Origin: Algibacter lectus
GTDB lineage: Bacteria > Bacteroidota > Bacteroidia > Flavobacteriales > Flavobacteriaceae
Direction of reading: 5' to 3'
Assembly: GCF_900112395.1 (NCBI RefSeq)
Contig: NZ_FOLN01000002.1
Coordinates: 372,001 to 436,000 of the forward strand
DNA length: 64,000 nucleotides
Below the pieces are notes generated by a model. That model saw only the letters and a program-made list of their open reading frames with translations. It did not search any database and was not told the origin of the DNA. Every line of letters starts with the position of its first letter. The first letter of the stretch is position 1. Positions 26,730 through 36,319 of this stretch are shown in pieces. A program made the position numbers and the translations under genes.

Positions 26730-28127
26730 CTAAAGCGCATACTTATCCAACAACTCTTTTAGTTTTGGTAACTCAAGAGGTTTTGCTAAAAATTCATTAG
26801 CACCGGCTTGTTTTGCGCTTTCAATATCTTCTTCAAAAGCACTTGCTGATACGGCTATAATTGGTGTTTTATGTTGTTGATACTTTTTGGTTTTTATAAT
26901 CTCACGGGTGGCTTCATAACCATCCATATCTGGCATATAGATATCCATAAAAATCATATCGAAATCTAATATTTTATAAAGTTCTACAGCTTCTAAACCG
27001 TTTTTCGCAAACGTACAATCGGCACCTTGCTTCTCAAGTAAAAACTTAATTACTTTTTGATTCATTCTATTATCTTCCGCAACCAACACATTAAATTTAG
27101 CATGAAGTCCAGGTGTTGCTTCTTCAACCATTTTAATATTAAGTGTCTTTTTTAATTGAAGACTAAAATAAAAAGTTGAACCTTCGTTCTCTTTACTTTC
27201 AAGCTTTAAGGTTCCCCCCATTAGCTTAACTAACTTTCTCGAAATAGAAAGTCCTAAACCAGCACCGCGATAATCTTTAATAATAGAAGCCGGAATATTA
27301 GTATCATCATCAAAAAAGCGCTTAACCTCGTCAGATCGCATCCCTACTCCAGTATCCTTTACATAAAATGTTACAATCTGTTCATGATCTATTCCCACAG
27401 TTTGATCGATAATAATAGAAATCTTCCCTGCATTAGTAAATTTAATAGCGTTATTAATCAAGTTAATTAAAACCTGTTGTATTCTAGACGAATCGCCATA
27501 TACTAAAGATTTATCTTTTTCTTCAAACAAAAATTTAAAATCAAACTCCAATCCTTTTTCCCAGGCTTGGTATTCAAATACTTTAAATAGGTTACCTAAA
27601 TCTTGTTTTAAGTCTATAGCGATAAAATTCAGTTTAACATCAGCACTATCAACTTCTGCATTATCCGTAACCATTTTCACCAACTGCAATAAATGCATGG
27701 ATGAAAATTCTGCAATTTCTACCTGAGCCACCTGATCACTATCCAAATTGGTTTGTTTTAGCATATTTAGCATACCTAAAACCGTGTTAAGAGGCGTTCG
27801 CACCTCATAACTCATGTTCGCTAAATAGATTGATTTATGCTCGGCTAAATTTTCAGATTTTTCTAAATCTGTTTTTAATTCCTTTATTCTAGATGTTAAG
27901 TTTTCTTTTATTACTTCATTCTTTAACAAACTCTTTAAGAAGAATTGCAGAGCAAAAACCTGAATAACAGCTACTATAAAAAGAAATAAGGCCGCTAATT
28001 CCGCATAAATTTTATCATCAACAAAAAGATAACCAATGATTAAAATAGCCGCAATAGAAGTGAATATTGAAAAAGATAATTTCTTTTTAACGGTAATATA
28101 CTTTACAGACTCCGGGATAAAATTCAT
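26730..28127 (-). CDS. Hybrid sensor kinase with Tyr in place of the phosphoacceptor His
   Basis: A 465-aa inner-membrane protein. Two membrane helices (about 18-36 and 42-66) with almost no periplasmic loop are followed by a short coiled coil (70-100), a HisKA-like helix pair (100-165), a HATPase domain (205-325) and a C-terminal receiver (345-462). The ATP site looks complete: N226 in LINNAIKF, KDTGVGM and GAGLGLSISRK. The receiver has its acceptor Asp395 (FMDIYMP) and acidic pair (VAEDN). In the H-box, NMSYEVRTPLN replaces the usual SHE(I/V)RTPLN: Tyr107 is encoded by TAT where CAT would give His. Classical autophosphorylation should be impossible. It may be a phosphatase, a heteromeric partner or an ATP-driven switch. 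Confidence 0.9.
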   Translation of the reverse strand: MNFIPESVKYITVKKKLSFSIFTSIAAILIIGYLFVDDKIYAELAALFLFIVAVIQVFALQFFLKSLLKNEVIKENLTSRIKELKTDLEKSENLAEHKSIYLANMSYEVRTPLNTVLGMLNMLKQTNLDSDQVAQVEIAEFSSMHLLQLVKMVTDNAEVDSADVKLNFIAIDLKQDLGNLFKVFEYQAWEKGLEFDFKFLFEEKDKSLVYGDSSRIQQVLINLINNAIKFTNAGKISIIIDQTVGIDHEQIVTFYVKDTGVGMRSDEVKRFFDDDTNIPASIIKDYRGAGLGLSISRKLVKLMGGTLKLESKENEGSTFYFSLQLKKTLNIKMVEEATPGLHAKFNVLVAEDNRMNQKVIKFLLEKQGADCTFAKNGLEAVELYKILDFDMIFMDIYMPDMDGYEATREIIKTKKYQQHKTPIIAVSASAFEEDIESAKQAGANEFLAKPLELPKLKELLDKYAL

Positions 28128-29522: not shown

Positions 29523-32500
29523 ATGGCGTTAAAAATTGTAATCTCACACAAAACAAAGTACAAGTATGATAGACCTATAAATCTATCTCCACATATTTTT
29601 AGATTACGTCCTGCCCCACATAGCAGAACGCCAATTGAGGCTTATTCAATAAAAATTAAACCCGAAAATCAATTTTTTAACTGGCAACAAGATGCCTTTG
29701 GTAATTATTTAGCGCGATTAATTTTTCCTGATAAAACGACCGAACTTTCTGTTGAAGTTGAAATTATTGCCGATTTAAAAACCATAAATCCTTTTGACTT
29801 TTTTGTTGAAGAAGCTGCGGAAGAATACCCGTTTACTTATAGTGACACCATTAAAAAGGAACTTCTACCCTATTTAGAAATTACCGATAATGGTCCGCTT
29901 ATTCATGAATTTATTAAAACTTTAGATTATACGCCAAGAAAAACAATCTATTTTTTAATTGATATTAATCAGAAAATATACGAGTTCTTAAGTTATAATA
30001 TTAGACTCGACCCTGGAGTACAAACTTGTGAAGAAACATTGCTTCAAAAAAACGGATCATGTCGTGATTATGCTTGGCTCTTTGTACAAGTATTGAGACA
30101 TTTAGGCTTTGGAGCACGTTTTGTTTCAGGTTATTTAGTACAATTAAAATCTGATGAAAAATCGCTTGATGGCCCTTCTGGTCCTGAGGAAGATTTTACA
30201 GATTTACATGCTTGGGCAGAGGTTTATTTACCTGGTGCTGGTTGGATTGGTTTCGATGCTACATCGGGATTATTAGCCGGAGAAGGTCATATTCCATTAG
30301 CTTGTACCCCTTCATTTGAAAGTGCTGCACCGGTTTCTGGAATGACAGATATTTGTGAAACTGAATTTGAATTTGAAAATTCTGTAAAACGCATTTTCGA
30401 ATCGCCTCGTGTAACAAAACCCTACACAGACAAACAATGGAACGACATTTATAAACTTGGTTTTAAAGTTGAAAAAGAACTAGAAAAAGGAGATGTACGT
30501 TTAACCATGGGTGGCGAACCGACTTTTGTTTCTATTGATGATATGGAATCGCCTGAATGGAACACAGATGCCGACGGACCACATAAAAGACAACTAGCAG
30601 ACGACTTAACGAAGCGCCTATTTAATAAATTTGCTAAAGGCGGATTTTTACATCGCGCACAAGGTAAATGGTATCCTGGAGAACCTTTACCACGTTGGGG
30701 AACGGAGCTTTGCTGGCGTAAAGATGGTAGAGTAATTTGGCATAACGAAAAATTACTTTCAACCTTTGCTGATAATAAAATTGTACCCGAAAATGCCGAT
30801 AAAATATTCTTAGAAACCTTAACCAAATATTTAGGTGTTACTGATAAAACAATAATGCCTGCCTTTGAAGATGCTTTTTATTTCCTTTGGGAAGAAGGTA
30901 ATTTACCAACAGATATTGACCCAAGAGAAGATAAAGATGGCTCGTTAATTCAAAAGAAATTAGGAGAAATATTAGAGCAAGGCACAAATAAAGTTGTTGG
31001 GTATTTAATGCCTTTAAACAATAGTTTTGGTCAATGGCACACGTGTACATGGCAATTTAGACGTAATCATTTATTTTTAACGCCTGGTAATTCACCAGTT
31101 GGTTTACGTTTACCTTTATCATCATTAGTGCATAAATCGGAATATGAAGAATTTCCAAAATTCGAACCCGATCAATTTACCAAACGTGGCAGATTCCCTA
31201 GCTATAAAAAAGTAGCAACCAATAGATATGCAGCTTTTGTTAACGGCGAATTAGAAAGTCCGAAAACTAATTATTTTATTAGAACCGCACTTTGTGCCGA
31301 GGTTAGAGATCAAAAACTATATTTATTTTTACCGCCATTAGATTGCGCTGAATTTTACCTCGACTTACTTTCTTCTATAGAAGCTACAGCAAAAGCATTG
31401 AACATACCGGTAATTTTAGAAGGTTATCCAGCACCAAAGGATAACAGATTGGAGTCCTTAAAAATCACTCCCGATCCTGGTGTTATTGAAATTAATGTGC
31501 ATCCAGCCAAAAACTGGGACGAGTTAACTAAAAACACTTTTACGCTTTACGAGGAAGCAAAACAATCGCGTTTAGGTACCGAAAAGTTTATGCTCGATGG
31601 AAAGCACACGGGGACAGGTGGCGGAAACCACGTAACTTTAGGAGGCATATCTCCTGCGGATAGTCCATTACTCCGTAAACCTAGTTTATTACGAAGTTTA
31701 TTAACCTTTTGGCAACATCATCCGGGGCTTTCTTATTTATTCTCAGGATCTTTTATTGGTGCAACCAGCCAAGCACCAAGAATAGATGAAGCGCGTATGG
31801 AAAACCTATACGAACTTGAAATTGCCTTTAGTCAAATACCTAAAGACGGCGAGGTTCCATTTTGGTTAACCGATAGATTGTTTAGACATTTATTAACCGA
31901 TTTAACCGGTAATACACATCGTGCAGAATTTTGTATTGATAAACTATATTCACCAGATTCATCATCGGGGCGTTTAGGTATTTTAGAGCTTCGTGCTTTC
32001 GATATGCCACCACATCCACAAATGAGTTTAATGCAAAATTTACTGGTACGTACTTTGGTGGCTTGGTTCTGGAAAAAACCTTACGAGCATGATTTAGTAC
32101 GTTGGGGGACAGAATTACACGATAAGTTTTTAATAGAACATTTTGTGCGAGAAGATATAAAAGACATTGTAAACTCTCTAAACAAAGCTGGATACCGCTT
32201 TAAAGAAGAATGGTTTAATCCTTTTTTCGAATTTAGATTTCCTTTACATGGTATGGTAACTATAAACAACATTCATATCGAACTTCGTGCAGCCATTGAG
32301 CCTTGGAATGTTTTAGGTGAAGAAATGACTGGCGGCGGAACGGCACGTTATGTAGATTCATCTTTGGAACGAATTCAAATTAAAGTTACTAATTTTACAG
32401 AAGAAAGATATGTTGTAACTTGCAACGGTGTTAAAGTAAACCTTAAAGCAACCTCTGTAAAAGGAGAATTTGTGGCAGGTATACGTTATAAGGCATGGGA

Positions 32501-32855
32501 TCCGTATTCTGCATTACACCCAACTATTGGTGTAGATTCTCCTCTTGTTTTCGATATTGTTGACACATGGAACAAACGTTCTATTGGTGGTTGCACCTAT
32601 TTTGTATCACATCCTGGCGGACGTTCTTACGACGTACATCCGGTAAATAGTTACGAAGCAGAATCTAGACGAATTAACCGTTTTTGGGAATCTGGGCATA
32701 CGCAAGGAGAAATCGATCCGATAAAAGAAACTATAACAGATGATAATACATCAAGCATTACCGTTAAAAAGAAAGGAAGTTCTAAAAAATTCAATTATAA
32801 AGAATTACCTGTTAATTTTGAGTTTCCTAACACAACAGATTTAAGAAAAAAGTAA
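29523..32855 (+). CDS. Transglutaminase-like protease fused to a DUF2126 domain
   Basis: A 1110-aa cytoplasmic protein with no signal peptide. Residues 1-90 form the N-terminal beta region of bacterial transglutaminase-like peptidases (KTKYKYDRPINLSPHIFRLRP). Residues 150-260 are the transglutaminase core with triad Cys180 (NGSCRDYAW), His229 (LHAWAEVY) and Asp245 (GFDATSG). From about residue 290 to 1090 it is the large DUF2126 domain (RLTMGGEPTFVSIDD, DGKHTGTGGGNHVTLGG, RIDEARMENLYELEIAF). The TGGGNH and carboxylate-rich motifs suggest a ligase-like active site, and the domain has been grouped with predicted amidoligases, but I know of no confirmed reaction. It is the first gene of a three-gene operon; the next gene starts 12 bases downstream. 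Confidence 0.85.
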   Translation: MALKIVISHKTKYKYDRPINLSPHIFRLRPAPHSRTPIEAYSIKIKPENQFFNWQQDAFGNYLARLIFPDKTTELSVEVEIIADLKTINPFDFFVEEAAEEYPFTYSDTIKKELLPYLEITDNGPLIHEFIKTLDYTPRKTIYFLIDINQKIYEFLSYNIRLDPGVQTCEETLLQKNGSCRDYAWLFVQVLRHLGFGARFVSGYLVQLKSDEKSLDGPSGPEEDFTDLHAWAEVYLPGAGWIGFDATSGLLAGEGHIPLACTPSFESAAPVSGMTDICETEFEFENSVKRIFESPRVTKPYTDKQWNDIYKLGFKVEKELEKGDVRLTMGGEPTFVSIDDMESPEWNTDADGPHKRQLADDLTKRLFNKFAKGGFLHRAQGKWYPGEPLPRWGTELCWRKDGRVIWHNEKLLSTFADNKIVPENADKIFLETLTKYLGVTDKTIMPAFEDAFYFLWEEGNLPTDIDPREDKDGSLIQKKLGEILEQGTNKVVGYLMPLNNSFGQWHTCTWQFRRNHLFLTPGNSPVGLRLPLSSLVHKSEYEEFPKFEPDQFTKRGRFPSYKKVATNRYAAFVNGELESPKTNYFIRTALCAEVRDQKLYLFLPPLDCAEFYLDLLSSIEATAKALNIPVILEGYPAPKDNRLESLKITPDPGVIEINVHPAKNWDELTKNTFTLYEEAKQSRLGTEKFMLDGKHTGTGGGNHVTLGGISPADSPLLRKPSLLRSLLTFWQHHPGLSYLFSGSFIGATSQAPRIDEARMENLYELEIAFSQIPKDGEVPFWLTDRLFRHLLTDLTGNTHRAEFCIDKLYSPDSSSGRLGILELRAFDMPPHPQMSLMQNLLVRTLVAWFWKKPYEHDLVRWGTELHDKFLIEHFVREDIKDIVNSLNKAGYRFKEEWFNPFFEFRFPLHGMVTINNIHIELRAAIEPWNVLGEEMTGGGTARYVDSSLERIQIKVTNFTEERYVVTCNGVKVNLKATSVKGEFVAGIRYKAWDPYSALHPTIGVDSPLVFDIVDTWNKRSIGGCTYFVSHPGGRSYDVHPVNSYEAESRRINRFWESGHTQGEIDPIKETITDDNTSSITVKKKGSSKKFNYKELPVNFEFPNTTDLRKK

Positions 32856-32867
32856 TTAATAAATTAA

Positions 32868-35426
32868 ATGACCATAGATTCAAATACACTATTTCAGAAT
32901 TATTTTACCAATCATAAAAATTATGATGAAGTATTGAAATCTAATATGAAAATTAACCCAGAATGGGGTGATTTACTATCTAATTTAATCACCGCAGGTC
33001 CTGACGAATTAATTTCTAGACAAAAAGAAATTGATTGGTTAATGGACGAAAACGGTGTAACCTACAACGTTTATAACGACCCAAAGGGCTTACACCGTGC
33101 TTGGGATTTAAGCATTGTGCCTTTTTTAATCCATGATAAAGAGTGGCTAACCATTGAAAAAGGTTTAAAACAACGCGCTGAGTTACTCAATTTAATTTTA
33201 AAAGATGTTTACGGTAAACGTGAGCTTATAAAAAATGGTATTGTACCTCACGAAGTATTGTTTGCTCATCGTGGTTTTTTACGCCAATGCGATCAAATAA
33301 AATACAACACCTCCAAAGATTTACTAATTCATGCAGCCGATTTAGCAAGAGGCCCAGATGGCCGTATGTGGGTGGTTAACGATCGTACGCAAGCACCTTC
33401 TGGTTTAGGTTATGCTTTAGAAAACAGATTCGCCATGAACAAGGCGGCATCAAATTTATTTAACGGTATAAATGTAAAACAACCAAGCGATTTTTTTCAG
33501 GATTACAACCAAATGCTTATTGATGCGGCTCCTAAAGATATCGATAATCCAAACATTGTTATACTAACATCTGGTCCGCATAACGAAACTTATTTTGAGC
33601 ATGCCTACATGTCTTCATTTCTTGGCTATCCTTTAGTAAAAGGAAACGATTTAGTGGTTAGAAATGGTAGAGTTTGGATGAAATCTTTAAAAGAATTAAA
33701 GCAAGTTCATGTTATTTTAAGGCGTGTAGATGATGTTTACATGGATCCTTTAGAACTTCGTGAAGATTCTTATTTAGGCATCGCAGGTATTCTAGATGTT
33801 ATTAGGCAAAAAAACGTAAGCATTGTAAACCCAATAGGTAGCGGTGTTTTAGAAAACTCTGGACTTATCCCGTTTATGAATGCTATTTGTAAGTATTTTT
33901 TTAATGAAGAATTACTGCTTCCGCAAATAGCCTCTTGGTGGTGTGGACAAGAAAAGGAACGAAATCATGTTTTAAAGAACATAAAAAAATATGTTGTAAA
34001 ACGAATTGATCGCTCTAATAGAGAAAGTATATACTTCTGTGAATTTTTAAATGAAGCTAAACTAAATAAATTAAAAGAAGAAATATTAGCAAATCCTTAT
34101 CGATTTGTAGCACAAGCAAAAATACAATTTTCTACTGCGCCAGAATTTATTGAAGGTAAATTAGAGCCGCGCAAAATAATGTGTAGAACCTTTGCTATCG
34201 CCAAAAAAGATGGTTACAGCATTATGCCAGGAGGTTTAGTACGTGTTGCCGCAGAGCGGGAGAACTTAATAGTATCCAACCAAAGAGGTGGCATTAGTAA
34301 AGATTTTTGGATTGTTAGTGATACGCAACAAAACTACTTCCATAATTATGCTTGGGATAATACATTTAGAAACCCTGTATCAGATATAAATGATTTACCT
34401 AGCCATACCGCAGAAAACTTATTTTGGTCTGGTCGTTACTTGGGGCGTGCTCTAGTCACTTCTCGCCTATTGCGCATGTGTTTAAATAGTATGCAAAGTT
34501 CGCAATATAAAAATGGTGAAGTTCCTCCCGAAAATTTAAAAATTATTTTTGAAGCCATAACAGGAATCACCCATACTTTACCGGGCTTTGTGGGTAAAGG
34601 CAAAGAAGACGTGCTTAAAAACCCTTTAAAAGAACTAAACGCACTTGTTCTAGACAGTTATAAAGTAGGTTCGTTAGCACAAACTTTAGGTAGTTTCAAT
34701 AATTCCTATTACACCTTAAGAAATTTATGGTCTAAAGATATGTGGCGCGTATTCGATGGTATCAAAAAACTATGGAATAAGCATGATAAAGACAAAGAAT
34801 ACTCGGTAGCAGCATTAATAAAATTACTCGATAGCACCATTACTCGCCTTATTGCTTTTATGGGGTTAATAGAAGAAAGTATTTTAGTAGACCAAGGTTT
34901 ACTTCTTTATTTTATTGGTTTGCAAACCGAACAAGCAAGTTTAACCATTGCAAAATGCAGATCTTTAATTGTAGCGAGTTATGACGAAGATTTAGAATAT
35001 GAAATGCTTGAGGCTTTATTATCTAGTCATGAAAGTTTAAATATTTACCGTTACAGTTACCGATCTTACCTAAGTGTTGAAAACGTGGTAAAATTAGTTA
35101 TACTTAACGATAAATACAGCCGTTCTCTCACCTATCAATTAAGTCGTATTTTAAAAGATATTGGCAAATTACCATTACCAACTGGGATTACGGGTAACTC
35201 AAAATGTTACGATTTAATTCATGAGGCCAATCAAATAATTCTAAAATCTAATATCGATACATTATTAGAATTAGATGAAACAGAAGCTGTAAGAGAGAAT
35301 TTAGAAGATATGCTTTCTGAACTTAGTGAATTATTGCATCAAACATCTTTATCTATTTCTGATACATATTTCAATCATTCATATCAACAAAATCAATTGG
35401 TTAATCAAAACTTTCCACTTCAATAA
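32868..35426 (+). CDS. Circularly permuted ATP-grasp ligase fused to an alpha-E domain
   Basis: An 852-aa cytoplasmic protein. Residues 1-485 are the circularly permuted type 2 ATP-grasp domain (DUF404/407-like), with DLARGPDGRMWVVNDRTQAP, SGLGYALENR, ILRRVDDVYMDPLELRED and PGGLVRVA. Residues 513-835 are the all-helical alpha-E domain (AENLFWSGRYLGRALVTSRL). In many bacteria these two are separate adjacent genes; here they form one chain. ATP-grasp enzymes form amide or ester bonds through acyl phosphates, so the protein is a predicted peptide ligase of unknown substrate. It begins 12 bases after the DUF2126 gene, and its last base is the first base of the following transglutaminase gene. Confidence 0.88.
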   Translation: MTIDSNTLFQNYFTNHKNYDEVLKSNMKINPEWGDLLSNLITAGPDELISRQKEIDWLMDENGVTYNVYNDPKGLHRAWDLSIVPFLIHDKEWLTIEKGLKQRAELLNLILKDVYGKRELIKNGIVPHEVLFAHRGFLRQCDQIKYNTSKDLLIHAADLARGPDGRMWVVNDRTQAPSGLGYALENRFAMNKAASNLFNGINVKQPSDFFQDYNQMLIDAAPKDIDNPNIVILTSGPHNETYFEHAYMSSFLGYPLVKGNDLVVRNGRVWMKSLKELKQVHVILRRVDDVYMDPLELREDSYLGIAGILDVIRQKNVSIVNPIGSGVLENSGLIPFMNAICKYFFNEELLLPQIASWWCGQEKERNHVLKNIKKYVVKRIDRSNRESIYFCEFLNEAKLNKLKEEILANPYRFVAQAKIQFSTAPEFIEGKLEPRKIMCRTFAIAKKDGYSIMPGGLVRVAAERENLIVSNQRGGISKDFWIVSDTQQNYFHNYAWDNTFRNPVSDINDLPSHTAENLFWSGRYLGRALVTSRLLRMCLNSMQSSQYKNGEVPPENLKIIFEAITGITHTLPGFVGKGKEDVLKNPLKELNALVLDSYKVGSLAQTLGSFNNSYYTLRNLWSKDMWRVFDGIKKLWNKHDKDKEYSVAALIKLLDSTITRLIAFMGLIEESILVDQGLLLYFIGLQTEQASLTIAKCRSLIVASYDEDLEYEMLEALLSSHESLNIYRYSYRSYLSVENVVKLVILNDKYSRSLTYQLSRILKDIGKLPLPTGITGNSKCYDLIHEANQIILKSNIDTLLELDETEAVRENLEDMLSELSELLHQTSLSISDTYFNHSYQQNQLVNQNFPLQ

Positions 35427-36319
35427 TGGTTTTTCAATTATCACATACCACAAGTTACAAATACGGCAATGGCGTAACATTTTGTCATAATATCGCGACC
35501 TTAAAACCACGTGATTTTTTGGGACAAACCATTTTAAGTTACGACTTGGAAATTAGTCCGAAACCAACAGAAATATCTGAACGTACTGACTTTTTCGGAA
35601 ACACCATCACCCGTTTTTCCATACAGCAATACCATAAAGAATTAAAAGTAATTGCAAAAAGCAAAGTGCTTCGTGATTATACTTTGGCTCCTGATATACA
35701 TAAATCTGAAAGTGGTTTAACTATTACTTTAGATGAAGCCAAAAAGGAATTAAAATCTATTTCACCTGAAATTTTAGAAGTAAAACAGTTTTTATTAGAA
35801 TCTATTTTAATTGCTAAAATATCCAAAAACATCAGAGACTACGCCTTAAAGTCTTTTAAGCCAGACCGACCTATATTCGAAGCGACTTCAGAATTAATGT
35901 TACGCATTTTTACCGATTTTGAGTTTAATTCAAATGCTACCAATGTGGCTACTCCTATCCAAGAAGTTATGGAAAACAAGAAAGGAGTTTGTCAAGATTT
36001 TGCGCAAATAGGGATTGCATGCCTGCGATCTATTGGCTTACCAGCTCGTTATGTTAGTGGCTATATAGAAACATTACCGCCTCCTGGAAAAGAAAAACTA
36101 ATAGGAACCGATGCATCTCACGCATGGTTTTCTGTATATATTCCAAAATTTGGATGGGTAGATTTCGACCCTACAAATAATCAAATACCACAAAACCAAC
36201 ACATTATTGTGGCTTATGGTCGTGATTATTATGATGTACCACCATTAAAAGGTGTTATTTATAGTTCTGGTGCCAATAAAATGAAAGTAGCAGTAGATAT
36301 TAGACCTGCGGTAGATTAA
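35426..36319 (+). CDS. Transglutaminase-like cysteine protease (ATP-grasp partner)
   Basis: A 297-aa cytoplasmic protein with the N-terminal beta domain (LSHTTSYKYGNGVTFCHNIA) and a transglutaminase core. The triad is Cys189 (KKGVCQDFAQ), His232 (DASHAWFSVY) and Asp248 (GWVDFDPTN). Such proteins regularly accompany the circularly permuted ATP-grasp/alpha-E pair and are predicted to cleave or transfer the amide bonds made by the ligase. Its start overlaps the ATP-grasp stop (TAATG), so translation is coupled. Its stop codon overlaps that of the convergent ABC gene. With the first gene of the operon it gives two different Cys-His-Asp enzymes for one ligase. Confidence 0.88.
   Translation: MVFQLSHTTSYKYGNGVTFCHNIATLKPRDFLGQTILSYDLEISPKPTEISERTDFFGNTITRFSIQQYHKELKVIAKSKVLRDYTLAPDIHKSESGLTITLDEAKKELKSISPEILEVKQFLLESILIAKISKNIRDYALKSFKPDRPIFEATSELMLRIFTDFEFNSNATNVATPIQEVMENKKGVCQDFAQIGIACLRSIGLPARYVSGYIETLPPPGKEKLIGTDASHAWFSVYIPKFGWVDFDPTNNQIPQNQHIIVAYGRDYYDVPPLKGVIYSSGANKMKVAVDIRPAVD

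What the first reader, a model, noticed from the sequence alone, without database searches (positions are those of the whole stretch)
29523..36319. Three-gene putative peptide-ligase system: transglutaminase-DUF2126, ATP-grasp-alpha-E fusion, transglutaminase
The sequence shows a tight operon (12-base gap, then a 1-base overlap) encoding two Cys-His-Asp transglutaminase-like enzymes, a circularly permuted ATP-grasp ligase fused to an alpha-E domain, and the very large DUF2126 domain. Related clusters have been predicted to make and cut amide-linked peptides or tags, but I know of no demonstrated product. Here no proteasome-like hydrolase or carrier peptide is adjacent, and ATP-grasp and alpha-E are one chain. 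This is the strongest candidate for undescribed chemistry in the window.
Basis: partly seen in the sequence, partly recalled or inferred. Interest (0 to 1): 0.8.

Follow-up and report, generated by a model that had tools for sequence, protein, structure and literature searches.

The report
Transglutaminase operon with a disabled ligase
This operon belongs to a widespread but still uncharacterised bacterial system that seems to make or cut amide bonds; its supposed ligase has lost the residues such enzymes normally need, and an intact version sits elsewhere in the same genome.

Summary
In detail: three tight genes encode TGase-DUF2126, an ATP-grasp/alpha-E fusion and a second TGase. The fusion's ATP-grasp half lacks the residues expected to bind Mg and ATP: of 11 such sites, 78 fused sequences keep 0-3, whereas 74 of 75 stand-alone relatives keep all 11. 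The gene is under purifying selection in the one pair tested, so it looks like a pseudo-ligase, not a dead gene. The same genome has a second cluster on another contig: intact ATP-grasp, alpha-E, third TGase. All 110 DUF2126-bearing genomes examined carry the stand-alone ATP-grasp, against 7 of 33 and 25 of 191 without DUF2126. PF00227 (proteasome family) finds nothing in this genome; no conserved carrier peptide was found near either cluster. TGase triads are intact. DUF2126's predicted fold resembles glutamine-synthetase-type ligases, weakly. Some proteobacterial relatives are under nitrogen control; no such signal was seen here. Best reading: the accessory half of a two-module amide-conjugation system known mainly from prediction. 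Its chemistry remains unknown.

The parts
29523..32855 (+). Gene A: transglutaminase-like domain (aa 7-246) fused to DUF2126 (aa 276-1108)
   Evidence: DUF2126 is the only copy in the genome
30060..30257 (+). Catalytic triad of gene A: C180 (30060), H229 (30207), D245 (30255); C180-R181-D182 motif
   Evidence: triad in 81 of 81 A-type sequences, positions
30348..32852 (+). DUF2126 region; predicted fold most like glutamine-synthetase-superfamily ligases (weak matches)
   Evidence: model pLDDT 77.7, pTM 0.80; Foldseek best match 1tt4 E 1.2e-3, then glutamine synthetases
32868..35426 (+). Gene B: circularly permuted ATP-grasp domain fused to alpha-E; reads as a pseudo-ligase
   Evidence: model pLDDT 87.1, pTM 0.86, best PDB match 3n6x
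33375..33386 (+). Gene B, place of the E-D-N motif (expected Mg ligands): reads N171-D172-R173
   Evidence: E kept in 1 and N in 0 of 78 fused; both 75 of 75 in stand-alone
33849..33866 (+). Gene B, place of the D-D-K motif (expected ATP lysine): reads E329-N330-S331
   Evidence: second D and K each 0 of 78 in fused, 75 of 75 in stand-alone
33996..34028 (+). Gene B, place of the Gly-rich loop: GGYG replaced by N384-R385-E386-S387; the preceding K378 is kept
   Evidence: G380 0, G381 21, Y382 0, G383 2, K374 69 of 78
34173..34193 (+). Gene B, place of the D-L-R motif: reads M438-C439-R440
   Evidence: D 0 of 78 fused, 74 of 75 stand-alone
34437..34451 (+). Gene B, alpha-E 'ER' motif: reads Y-L-G-R-A (E replaced by G526)
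   Evidence: E 74 of 74 stand-alone alpha-E; fused E 46, G 25 of 77
35426..36319 (+). Gene C: stand-alone transglutaminase-like protein, triad C189/H232/D248, C-Q-D motif
   Evidence: triad in 51 of 51 C-type sequences

Best explanation
The operon is the accessory module of a two-module amide-bond system. Module 2, outside the window (G000:C13 about 153010-156377 = L031:7011-10378), encodes the intact circularly permuted ATP-grasp ligase, a stand-alone alpha-E and a third TGase. Module 1 (the window) adds a TGase joined to DUF2126 (a glutamine-synthetase-like domain), a fused ATP-grasp/alpha-E in which the ATP-grasp has become a pseudo-ligase, and another TGase. Proposed working order: the module 2 ATP-grasp activates a carboxylate as an acyl phosphate and joins it to an amine with alpha-E as partner; the fused pseudo-ligase/pseudo-alpha-E mimics that pair and serves as a non-catalytic partner, scaffold or regulator; DUF2126 makes a second ATP-dependent step; the Cys-His-Asp TGases exchange or hydrolyse the amide, which in nitrogen-limited relatives would free or trap amine nitrogen. 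Shown by computation: gene content, residue loss, intact triads, co-occurrence, sigma54-like sites upstream in some proteobacterial relatives. Inferred: that the pseudo-ligase does not use MgATP, that it partners module 2, and all of the chemistry (my odds: accessory module with pseudo-ligase about 0.75; partner of module 2 about 0.5; nitrogen-linked amide conjugation about 0.35).
For: Residues: 11 sites, 78 fused keep 0-3, 74 of 75 stand-alones keep 11; two fused pairs and one stand-alone pair are duplicates. Control on all sites: of 108 stand-alone-invariant columns 58 are kept in at least 80% of fused and 28 in at most 10%, and those 28 include the E-D-N, D-D-K, Gly-loop, D-L-R and N-S-S-Q motifs, so the fold is kept and the site is lost. 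The fused clade is one clade in a FastTree tree (support 1.0, midpoint root) and has its own invariants (W358 and G360 78 of 78, E329 76 of 78). Gene B between two species of the genus: dN 0.084, dS 1.00. Dependence: stand-alone ATP-grasp in 46 of 46, 27 of 27 and 38 of 38 (one of them, G738, in two broken pieces) DUF2126 genomes, G701 in two sets, so 110 by handle; in DUF2126-negative genomes 7 of 33 and 25 of 191. Every fused gene seen is in a genome with a stand-alone one. Nitrogen: B. cenocepacia I35_5080-5083 listed at -8.2, -9.4, -9.4, -6.0 in an ntrC mutant; sigma54-like sites (at most 1 mismatch) in 21 of 138 upstream regions, 3 of 138 on the other strand, 9 of 2760 shuffles.
Against: The two modules do not co-evolve tightly: correlations of pairwise identity across 24 genomes are 0.83 and 0.96 within modules but 0.21-0.44 between them. 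Two Gammaproteobacteria (G718, G811; completeness not told) have the fusion without DUF2126, and 23 of 38 DUF2126 genomes there lack the fusion; so do 3 of 46 and 2 of 27 elsewhere. K374 is kept in 69 and R436 in 77 of 78 fused, so some nucleotide binding is not excluded. Fused-specific invariants at the old site could mean a new activity. The sigma54 count includes seven closely related Pseudomonas loci, and neither cluster of this genome has such a site (best 5 mismatches). DUF2126 matches to ligases are weak (none at E below 0.001, TM-scores 0.15-0.18 on the query) and its profile does not match E. coli YbdK or GlnA. No physical interaction was tested; a published pull-down with Anbu as bait saw no specific complex among Anbu-operon proteins.
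Confidence: 0.5

Rival explanations
1. The window operon is self-sufficient: gene B is still an ATP-dependent peptide ligase with unusual residues, DUF2126 a second ligase, and the TGases cut or transfer.
For: The fold is kept (3n6x best match, E 1.1e-32), K374 kept in 69 of 78 and R436 in 77 of 78, and fused-specific residues are strongly conserved at the old site.
Against: All three expected Mg ligands, one ATP lysine and the Gly loop are missing in nearly every fused sequence. DUF2126 genomes always carried the intact stand-alone ligase in the 110 examined.
Confidence: 0.12
2. A pupylation-like protein-tagging pathway: a small peptide is ligated to proteins and removed or degraded by Anbu or a metallopeptidase.
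For: Ligase-like, TGase and proteasome-like parts occur together in relatives: the G258 module 2 contains a 254-aa PF00227 protein; Anbu-like hits in 12 of 52 well-covered named loci. Tagging was proposed in print for the Anbu operon (passages).
Against: No conserved short ORF within 3 kb of either module in 41 family loci, apart from ones beside prfB that I read as its frameshift leader. PF00227 absent here and in 38 of 46 DUF2126 Bacteroidota genomes.
Confidence: 0.15
3. A small-molecule nitrogen-scavenging or storage pathway in the style of gamma-glutamyl-amide synthesis: an amine is fixed on a carboxylate, then processed and released by the TGases.
For: NtrC/sigma54 control in relatives; nitrogen-limitation expression of a TGase-like gene in P. 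putida (PP2686, values 6.6 and 4.6); urea-metabolism association in marine metagenomes; glutaminase and a zinc metallopeptidase beside the modules in G157, G258 and G008; DUF2126 model near gamma-glutamylmethylamide synthetase 9qur, E 0.014.
Against: No substrate, transporter or catabolic enzyme is consistently linked. No nitrogen signal in this genome. Fold similarity is weak.
Confidence: 0.3

Closest known systems
Anbu operon (ATP-grasp, alpha-E, transglutaminase, Anbu) of Pseudomonas, Yersinia, Hyphomicrobium
   Same: Module 2 of this genome has the ATP-grasp, alpha-E and TGase of that operon; the stand-alone ATP-grasp matches 3n6x at 546 bits. The Yersinia ATP-grasp releases phosphate from ATP (passages).
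   Different: No Anbu in this genome; the window's module adds DUF2126, a fused pseudo-ATP-grasp/alpha-E and more TGases; the two modules are on different contigs.
Predicted amidoligase systems of Iyer et al. 2009 (PMC3268129; paper not held; content known to me from citations and from recall)
   Same: Same domain set, including DUF2126, named by Pfam 'putative amidoligase'.
   Different: I could not check whether that paper already noted the inactive ATP-grasp copy or the two-module dependence.
Burkholderia cenocepacia I35_5080-5083 (DUF404/DUF407, DUF403, TGase, large TGase)
   Same: Same four protein kinds by name, nitrogen-regulated through NtrC (passages).
   Different: There listed as four separate genes; identity of the large TGase with TGase-DUF2126 is my inference.
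Glutathionylspermidine / glutathione synthetases (2io7, 3n6x, 2hgs)
   Same: Fold of the ATP-grasp half.
   Different: Gene B lacks the expected Mg and ATP residues; no sequence match of the stand-alone profile to E. coli Gss.
Pupylation (PafA, Dop, Pup, proteasome)
   Same: Also joins a glutamine-synthetase-fold ligase with, in other bacteria, a proteasome-like hydrolase; Dop (5lrt) appears at rank 39, E 0.62.
   Different: No carrier peptide found nearby, no proteasome in the genome, added ATP-grasp, alpha-E and TGases.

Membership tests
Predicted ATP-grasp/alpha-E/TGase peptide system (Iyer 2009 type) | Circularly permuted ATP-grasp, alpha-E and TGase encoded together | tested here: met
   window; module 2
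Predicted ATP-grasp/alpha-E/TGase peptide system (Iyer 2009 type) | Proteasome-like Anbu in the operon | tested here: not met
   PF00227 absent from the genome. Not treated as excluding: 38 of 46 DUF2126 Bacteroidota genomes have no PF00227 match
Active circularly permuted ATP-grasp ligase (gene B) | Mg ligands, ATP lysines and Gly-rich loop (assignment by analogy, recalled) | tested here: not met
   at most 3 of 11 sites in any of 78 fused sequences
Active circularly permuted ATP-grasp ligase (module 2 gene, L031:7011-8453) | Same residues | tested here: met
   11 of 11; only L132 of 75 stand-alones falls short
Transglutaminase-like cysteine enzymes (A and C) | Cys-His-Asp triad | tested here: met
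   81 of 81 and 51 of 51
Transglutaminase-like cysteine enzymes (A and C) | Transamidation rather than proteolysis | not testable with these tools
   needs enzyme assay
Glutamine-synthetase superfamily (DUF2126) | Fold | tested here: inconclusive
   coherent but weak Foldseek matches; no sequence-profile match
Glutamine-synthetase superfamily (DUF2126) | Catalytic residues | tested here: inconclusive
   motifs GGEPTF, DPGVIE, GNH, ELR are conserved and look GS-like by eye only
Pupylation-like tagging | Dedicated carrier peptide | tested here: not met
   none near the modules; elsewhere in the genome not searched
Anti-phage defence | Match to a PADLOC model | tested here: not met
   0 families for the three proteins

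The most novel reading that the evidence does not exclude
The fused pseudo-ATP-grasp is not merely a scaffold: its old ATP site has been rebuilt into a new, strictly conserved site (N/E/P-S at the D-D-K motif, R at the Mg-ligand Asn, W-W-C-G at 357-360), so that an ATP-grasp fold carries out, or allosterically gates, a reaction that ATP-grasp enzymes are not known to do, as part of a bacterial nitrogen-economy amide-conjugation system spread over many phyla.
Probability: 0.15. Interest if true: 0.85.

Novelty: new member of a known kind. Interest (0 to 1): 0.5.

Why it matters
The Anbu/alpha-E/ATP-grasp/TGase operons have resisted assignment (in the passages I saw, no Anbu peptidase activity and no complex among the operon proteins). 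If the operons come as an active module plus a pseudo-ligase module, assays that used one module may have lacked partners, and the right test is to reconstitute or delete both together under nitrogen limitation. It also corrects the idea that the ligase of this window's operon is its own ATP-grasp.

Tried and rejected
Gene B as the active ligase: rejected on residues. Anbu elsewhere in the genome: PF00227 negative. Conserved carrier peptide: none found near the modules (606 short intergenic ORFs in 41 loci; the families in 3 or more loci lie beside prfB, which I read as its programmed-frameshift leader and its antisense or alternative frames, by eye). Neighbour enrichment in 80 named loci: mostly Pseudomonas synteny; one 419-aa family upstream in six loci, not followed. 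Sequence-profile mapping of active sites: DUF2126 on YbdK and GlnA and the stand-alone ATP-grasp on Gss, all without significance. Sigma54 promoter for the window operon: none, best 5 mismatches; a scan of the whole window gave 33 sites with up to 2 mismatches against 31 expected. Sigma70 and terminator scans: no excess over shuffles. Defence system: no PADLOC match. Fragment or decay artefact: open frames, dN/dS low in one pair with near-saturated dS, and YN00 failed for gene B.

Limits of the residue count: fused hits of 1100 bp or less were left out (L079, L081, L116, L072, L073) and short stand-alone pieces in L132, L072, L073. The 11 sites were picked by me from the stand-alone invariants because they resemble known ATP-grasp site residues (recalled); the control over all 108 invariant columns is. 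The 33 DUF2126-negative Bacteroidota genomes were taken from the top of listings, not at random.
Full report
Observation. Pfam gives Bact_transglu_N, Transglut_core and DUF2126 for A, CP_ATPgrasp_2 and Alpha-E for B, and Bact_transglu_N and Transglut_core for C. NCBIfam has no model that matches any of the three. The window lies at G000:C23:372001-436000 in a 4.81 Mb genome with one DUF2126 gene. Flanks are housekeeping: GMP reductase upstream, a ModF-like ABC protein and a BadF-like protein downstream.

How common. In the window's family 36 of 299 sampled genomes have DUF2126, in the phylum sample 12 of 395, in the class of a Pseudomonas genome 38 of 229. Of the 80 loci, 52 reach at least 9 kb on both sides: the fusion is there in 40, a stand-alone ATP-grasp in 31, both in 24, neither in 5, an Anbu-like hit in 12, the zinc metallopeptidase in 5.

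The second module. Alpha-E was found twice or more in each of the 36 DUF2126 genomes of the family sample, once in the fusion and once stand-alone; of 14 DUF2126-negative genomes 3 had one, stand-alone. In this genome the second copy sits on contig C13 in a cluster ATP-grasp (480 aa), alpha-E (307 aa), TGase (322 aa, triad C179/H218/D234). In 12 family genomes (G002, G084, G113, G145, G157, G169, G180, G217, G245, G246, G271, G291) the second cluster lies next to the DUF2126 operon. In G258 the cluster also holds a 254-aa protein that matches the proteasome family (PF00227, E 1.6e-8), between alpha-E and TGase, which makes module 2 the Anbu-type operon. This genome has no PF00227 match. Of 46 DUF2126 Bacteroidota genomes 8 have one; frames of 248-259 aa in 6 look Anbu-sized and 184-221 aa in 3 look HslV-sized (labels by size are mine).

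The pseudo-ligase. I aligned 78 fused and 75 stand-alone ATP-grasp domains (24 fused and 29 stand-alone from family loci and the window, the rest from named records; two fused pairs and one stand-alone pair are the same sequence). Eleven sites resembling known ATP-grasp Mg and ATP residues (recalled from glutathione and glutathionylspermidine synthetases) are all kept in 74 of 75 stand-alones; the exception is L132, whose frame is split. In fused sequences the counts are E169 1, N171 0, D326 0, K327 0, K374 69, G380 0, G381 21, Y382 0, G383 2, D434 0, N466 2, of 78. As a control, over all 108 columns invariant in the stand-alones, 58 are kept in at least 80% of fused sequences and 28 in at most 10%; the 28 include these motifs. 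So the fold is retained and the site is not. The predicted structure of B is confident (pLDDT 87.1) and its best solved match is 3n6x, E 1.1e-32, followed by glutathione synthetases; by sequence 3n6x matches the stand-alone at 546 bits and B at 269. The alpha-E half has also drifted: the E of the family's ER motif is 74 of 74 in stand-alones but 46 of 77 in fusions, and is G in the window. Nothing in the 50 Foldseek rows shown could be assigned to alpha-E. Gene B is nevertheless maintained: dN 0.084 and dS 1.00 against its congener, with the caveat of near-saturated dS and one pair; fused sequences form one clade and share their own invariants such as W358 and G360 in 78 of 78.

Dependence. 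Using a profile of stand-alone ATP-grasps, which separates the two kinds by score and frame length, 46 of 46 DUF2126 Bacteroidota genomes have the stand-alone and 43 the fusion, against 7 and 0 of 33 DUF2126-negative ones. Of 27 named genomes, 27 have the stand-alone and 25 the fusion. In the Pseudomonas class sample 38 of 38 DUF2126 genomes have the stand-alone (G738 only in two broken pieces) and 15 the fusion; of 191 without DUF2126, 25 have the stand-alone and 2 (G718, G811) the fusion. G701 is in two sets, so the totals are 110 of 110 for the stand-alone and 82 of 110 for the fusion, by handle. The order is therefore nested: stand-alone ligase first, DUF2126 on top of it, the fusion mostly with DUF2126. 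Against a tightly fitted complex, identities co-vary within modules (0.83, 0.96) but weakly between them (0.21-0.44) over 24 genomes.

DUF2126. No solved relative by sequence. A model from 60 sequences (pLDDT 77.7, pTM 0.80) has no Foldseek match below E 0.001; the best is 1tt4, a predicted glutathione synthase of the glutamate-cysteine ligase 2 kind (E 1.2e-3, probability 0.99), and the ranks 2-30 are glutamine synthetases or gamma-glutamylmethylamide synthetases, with low TM-scores. Profile comparison with E. coli YbdK and GlnA gave nothing. I take the glutamine-synthetase reading, which is also Pfam's label (putative amidoligase), as likely but unproven.

Nitrogen. Passages of PMC5491218 list I35_5080-5083 of B. 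cenocepacia (DUF404/407, DUF403, two TGase proteins) among NtrC-dependent genes. PMC3325844 lists a TGase-like gene PP2686 in a nitrogen-limitation table (one passage). PMC3597751 associates these domains with urea metabolism in marine metagenomes (passages). PMC12316311 puts proteasome-type COG3484 in a sigma54 cluster of Proteobacteria (passage). In the named loci 21 of 138 upstream regions have a sigma54-like site with at most one mismatch, against 3 of 138 on the other strand and 9 of 2760 shuffles; seven of the 21 are Pseudomonas relatives. The window and its second cluster have none. Transfer of the nitrogen role to this organism is inference.

Mechanism. I favour a two-module amide-conjugation system: an active ATP-grasp with alpha-E from module 2, a pseudo-copy of that pair as partner or regulator from module 1, a second ligase-like step by DUF2126, and TGases that exchange or cut the amide. 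Only the anatomy, the residues and the co-occurrence are shown.

Literature. Searches for the domains, COG names and inactive ATP-grasp copies returned no characterised function and no paper on an inactive ATP-grasp; the library holds open-licence papers only and the founding prediction (Iyer 2009) is not in it. So I do not claim that the pseudo-ligase is unreported, only that I did not find it there. The operon is a new example of a predicted and widespread kind, with a dependence and a pseudo-ligase that make it more testable.

Noticed in passing
L031:7011-10378 (G000:C13, outside the window): Second cluster with intact ATP-grasp, alpha-E and a third TGase; the active partner proposed here.
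   Followed up: yes
L034, L046, L050: A glutaminase and a zinc-ribbon metallopeptidase (Peptidase_Mx) sit beside the modules in three genomes (G157, G258, G008).
   Followed up: partly
G889, G748, G859, G753, G868: Extra proteins of about 713-718 aa match DUF2126 in two separate stretches; a divergent DUF2126 paralogue.
   Followed up: no
L087, L092, L098, L108, L111, L117: A conserved protein of about 419 aa of unknown kind lies near DUF2126 in six proteobacterial loci.
   Followed up: no
L035:12758-12832 and relatives: Conserved 24-aa ORF before prfB in 12 loci, read as the release-factor-2 frameshift leader.
   Followed up: partly
L082: Record title says Helicobacter pylori PMSS1 but it is a metagenome-assembled genome; the label is doubtful.
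   Followed up: no
window 26730-28127: Hybrid histidine kinase with receiver domain, next to the operon's upstream neighbour.
   Followed up: no
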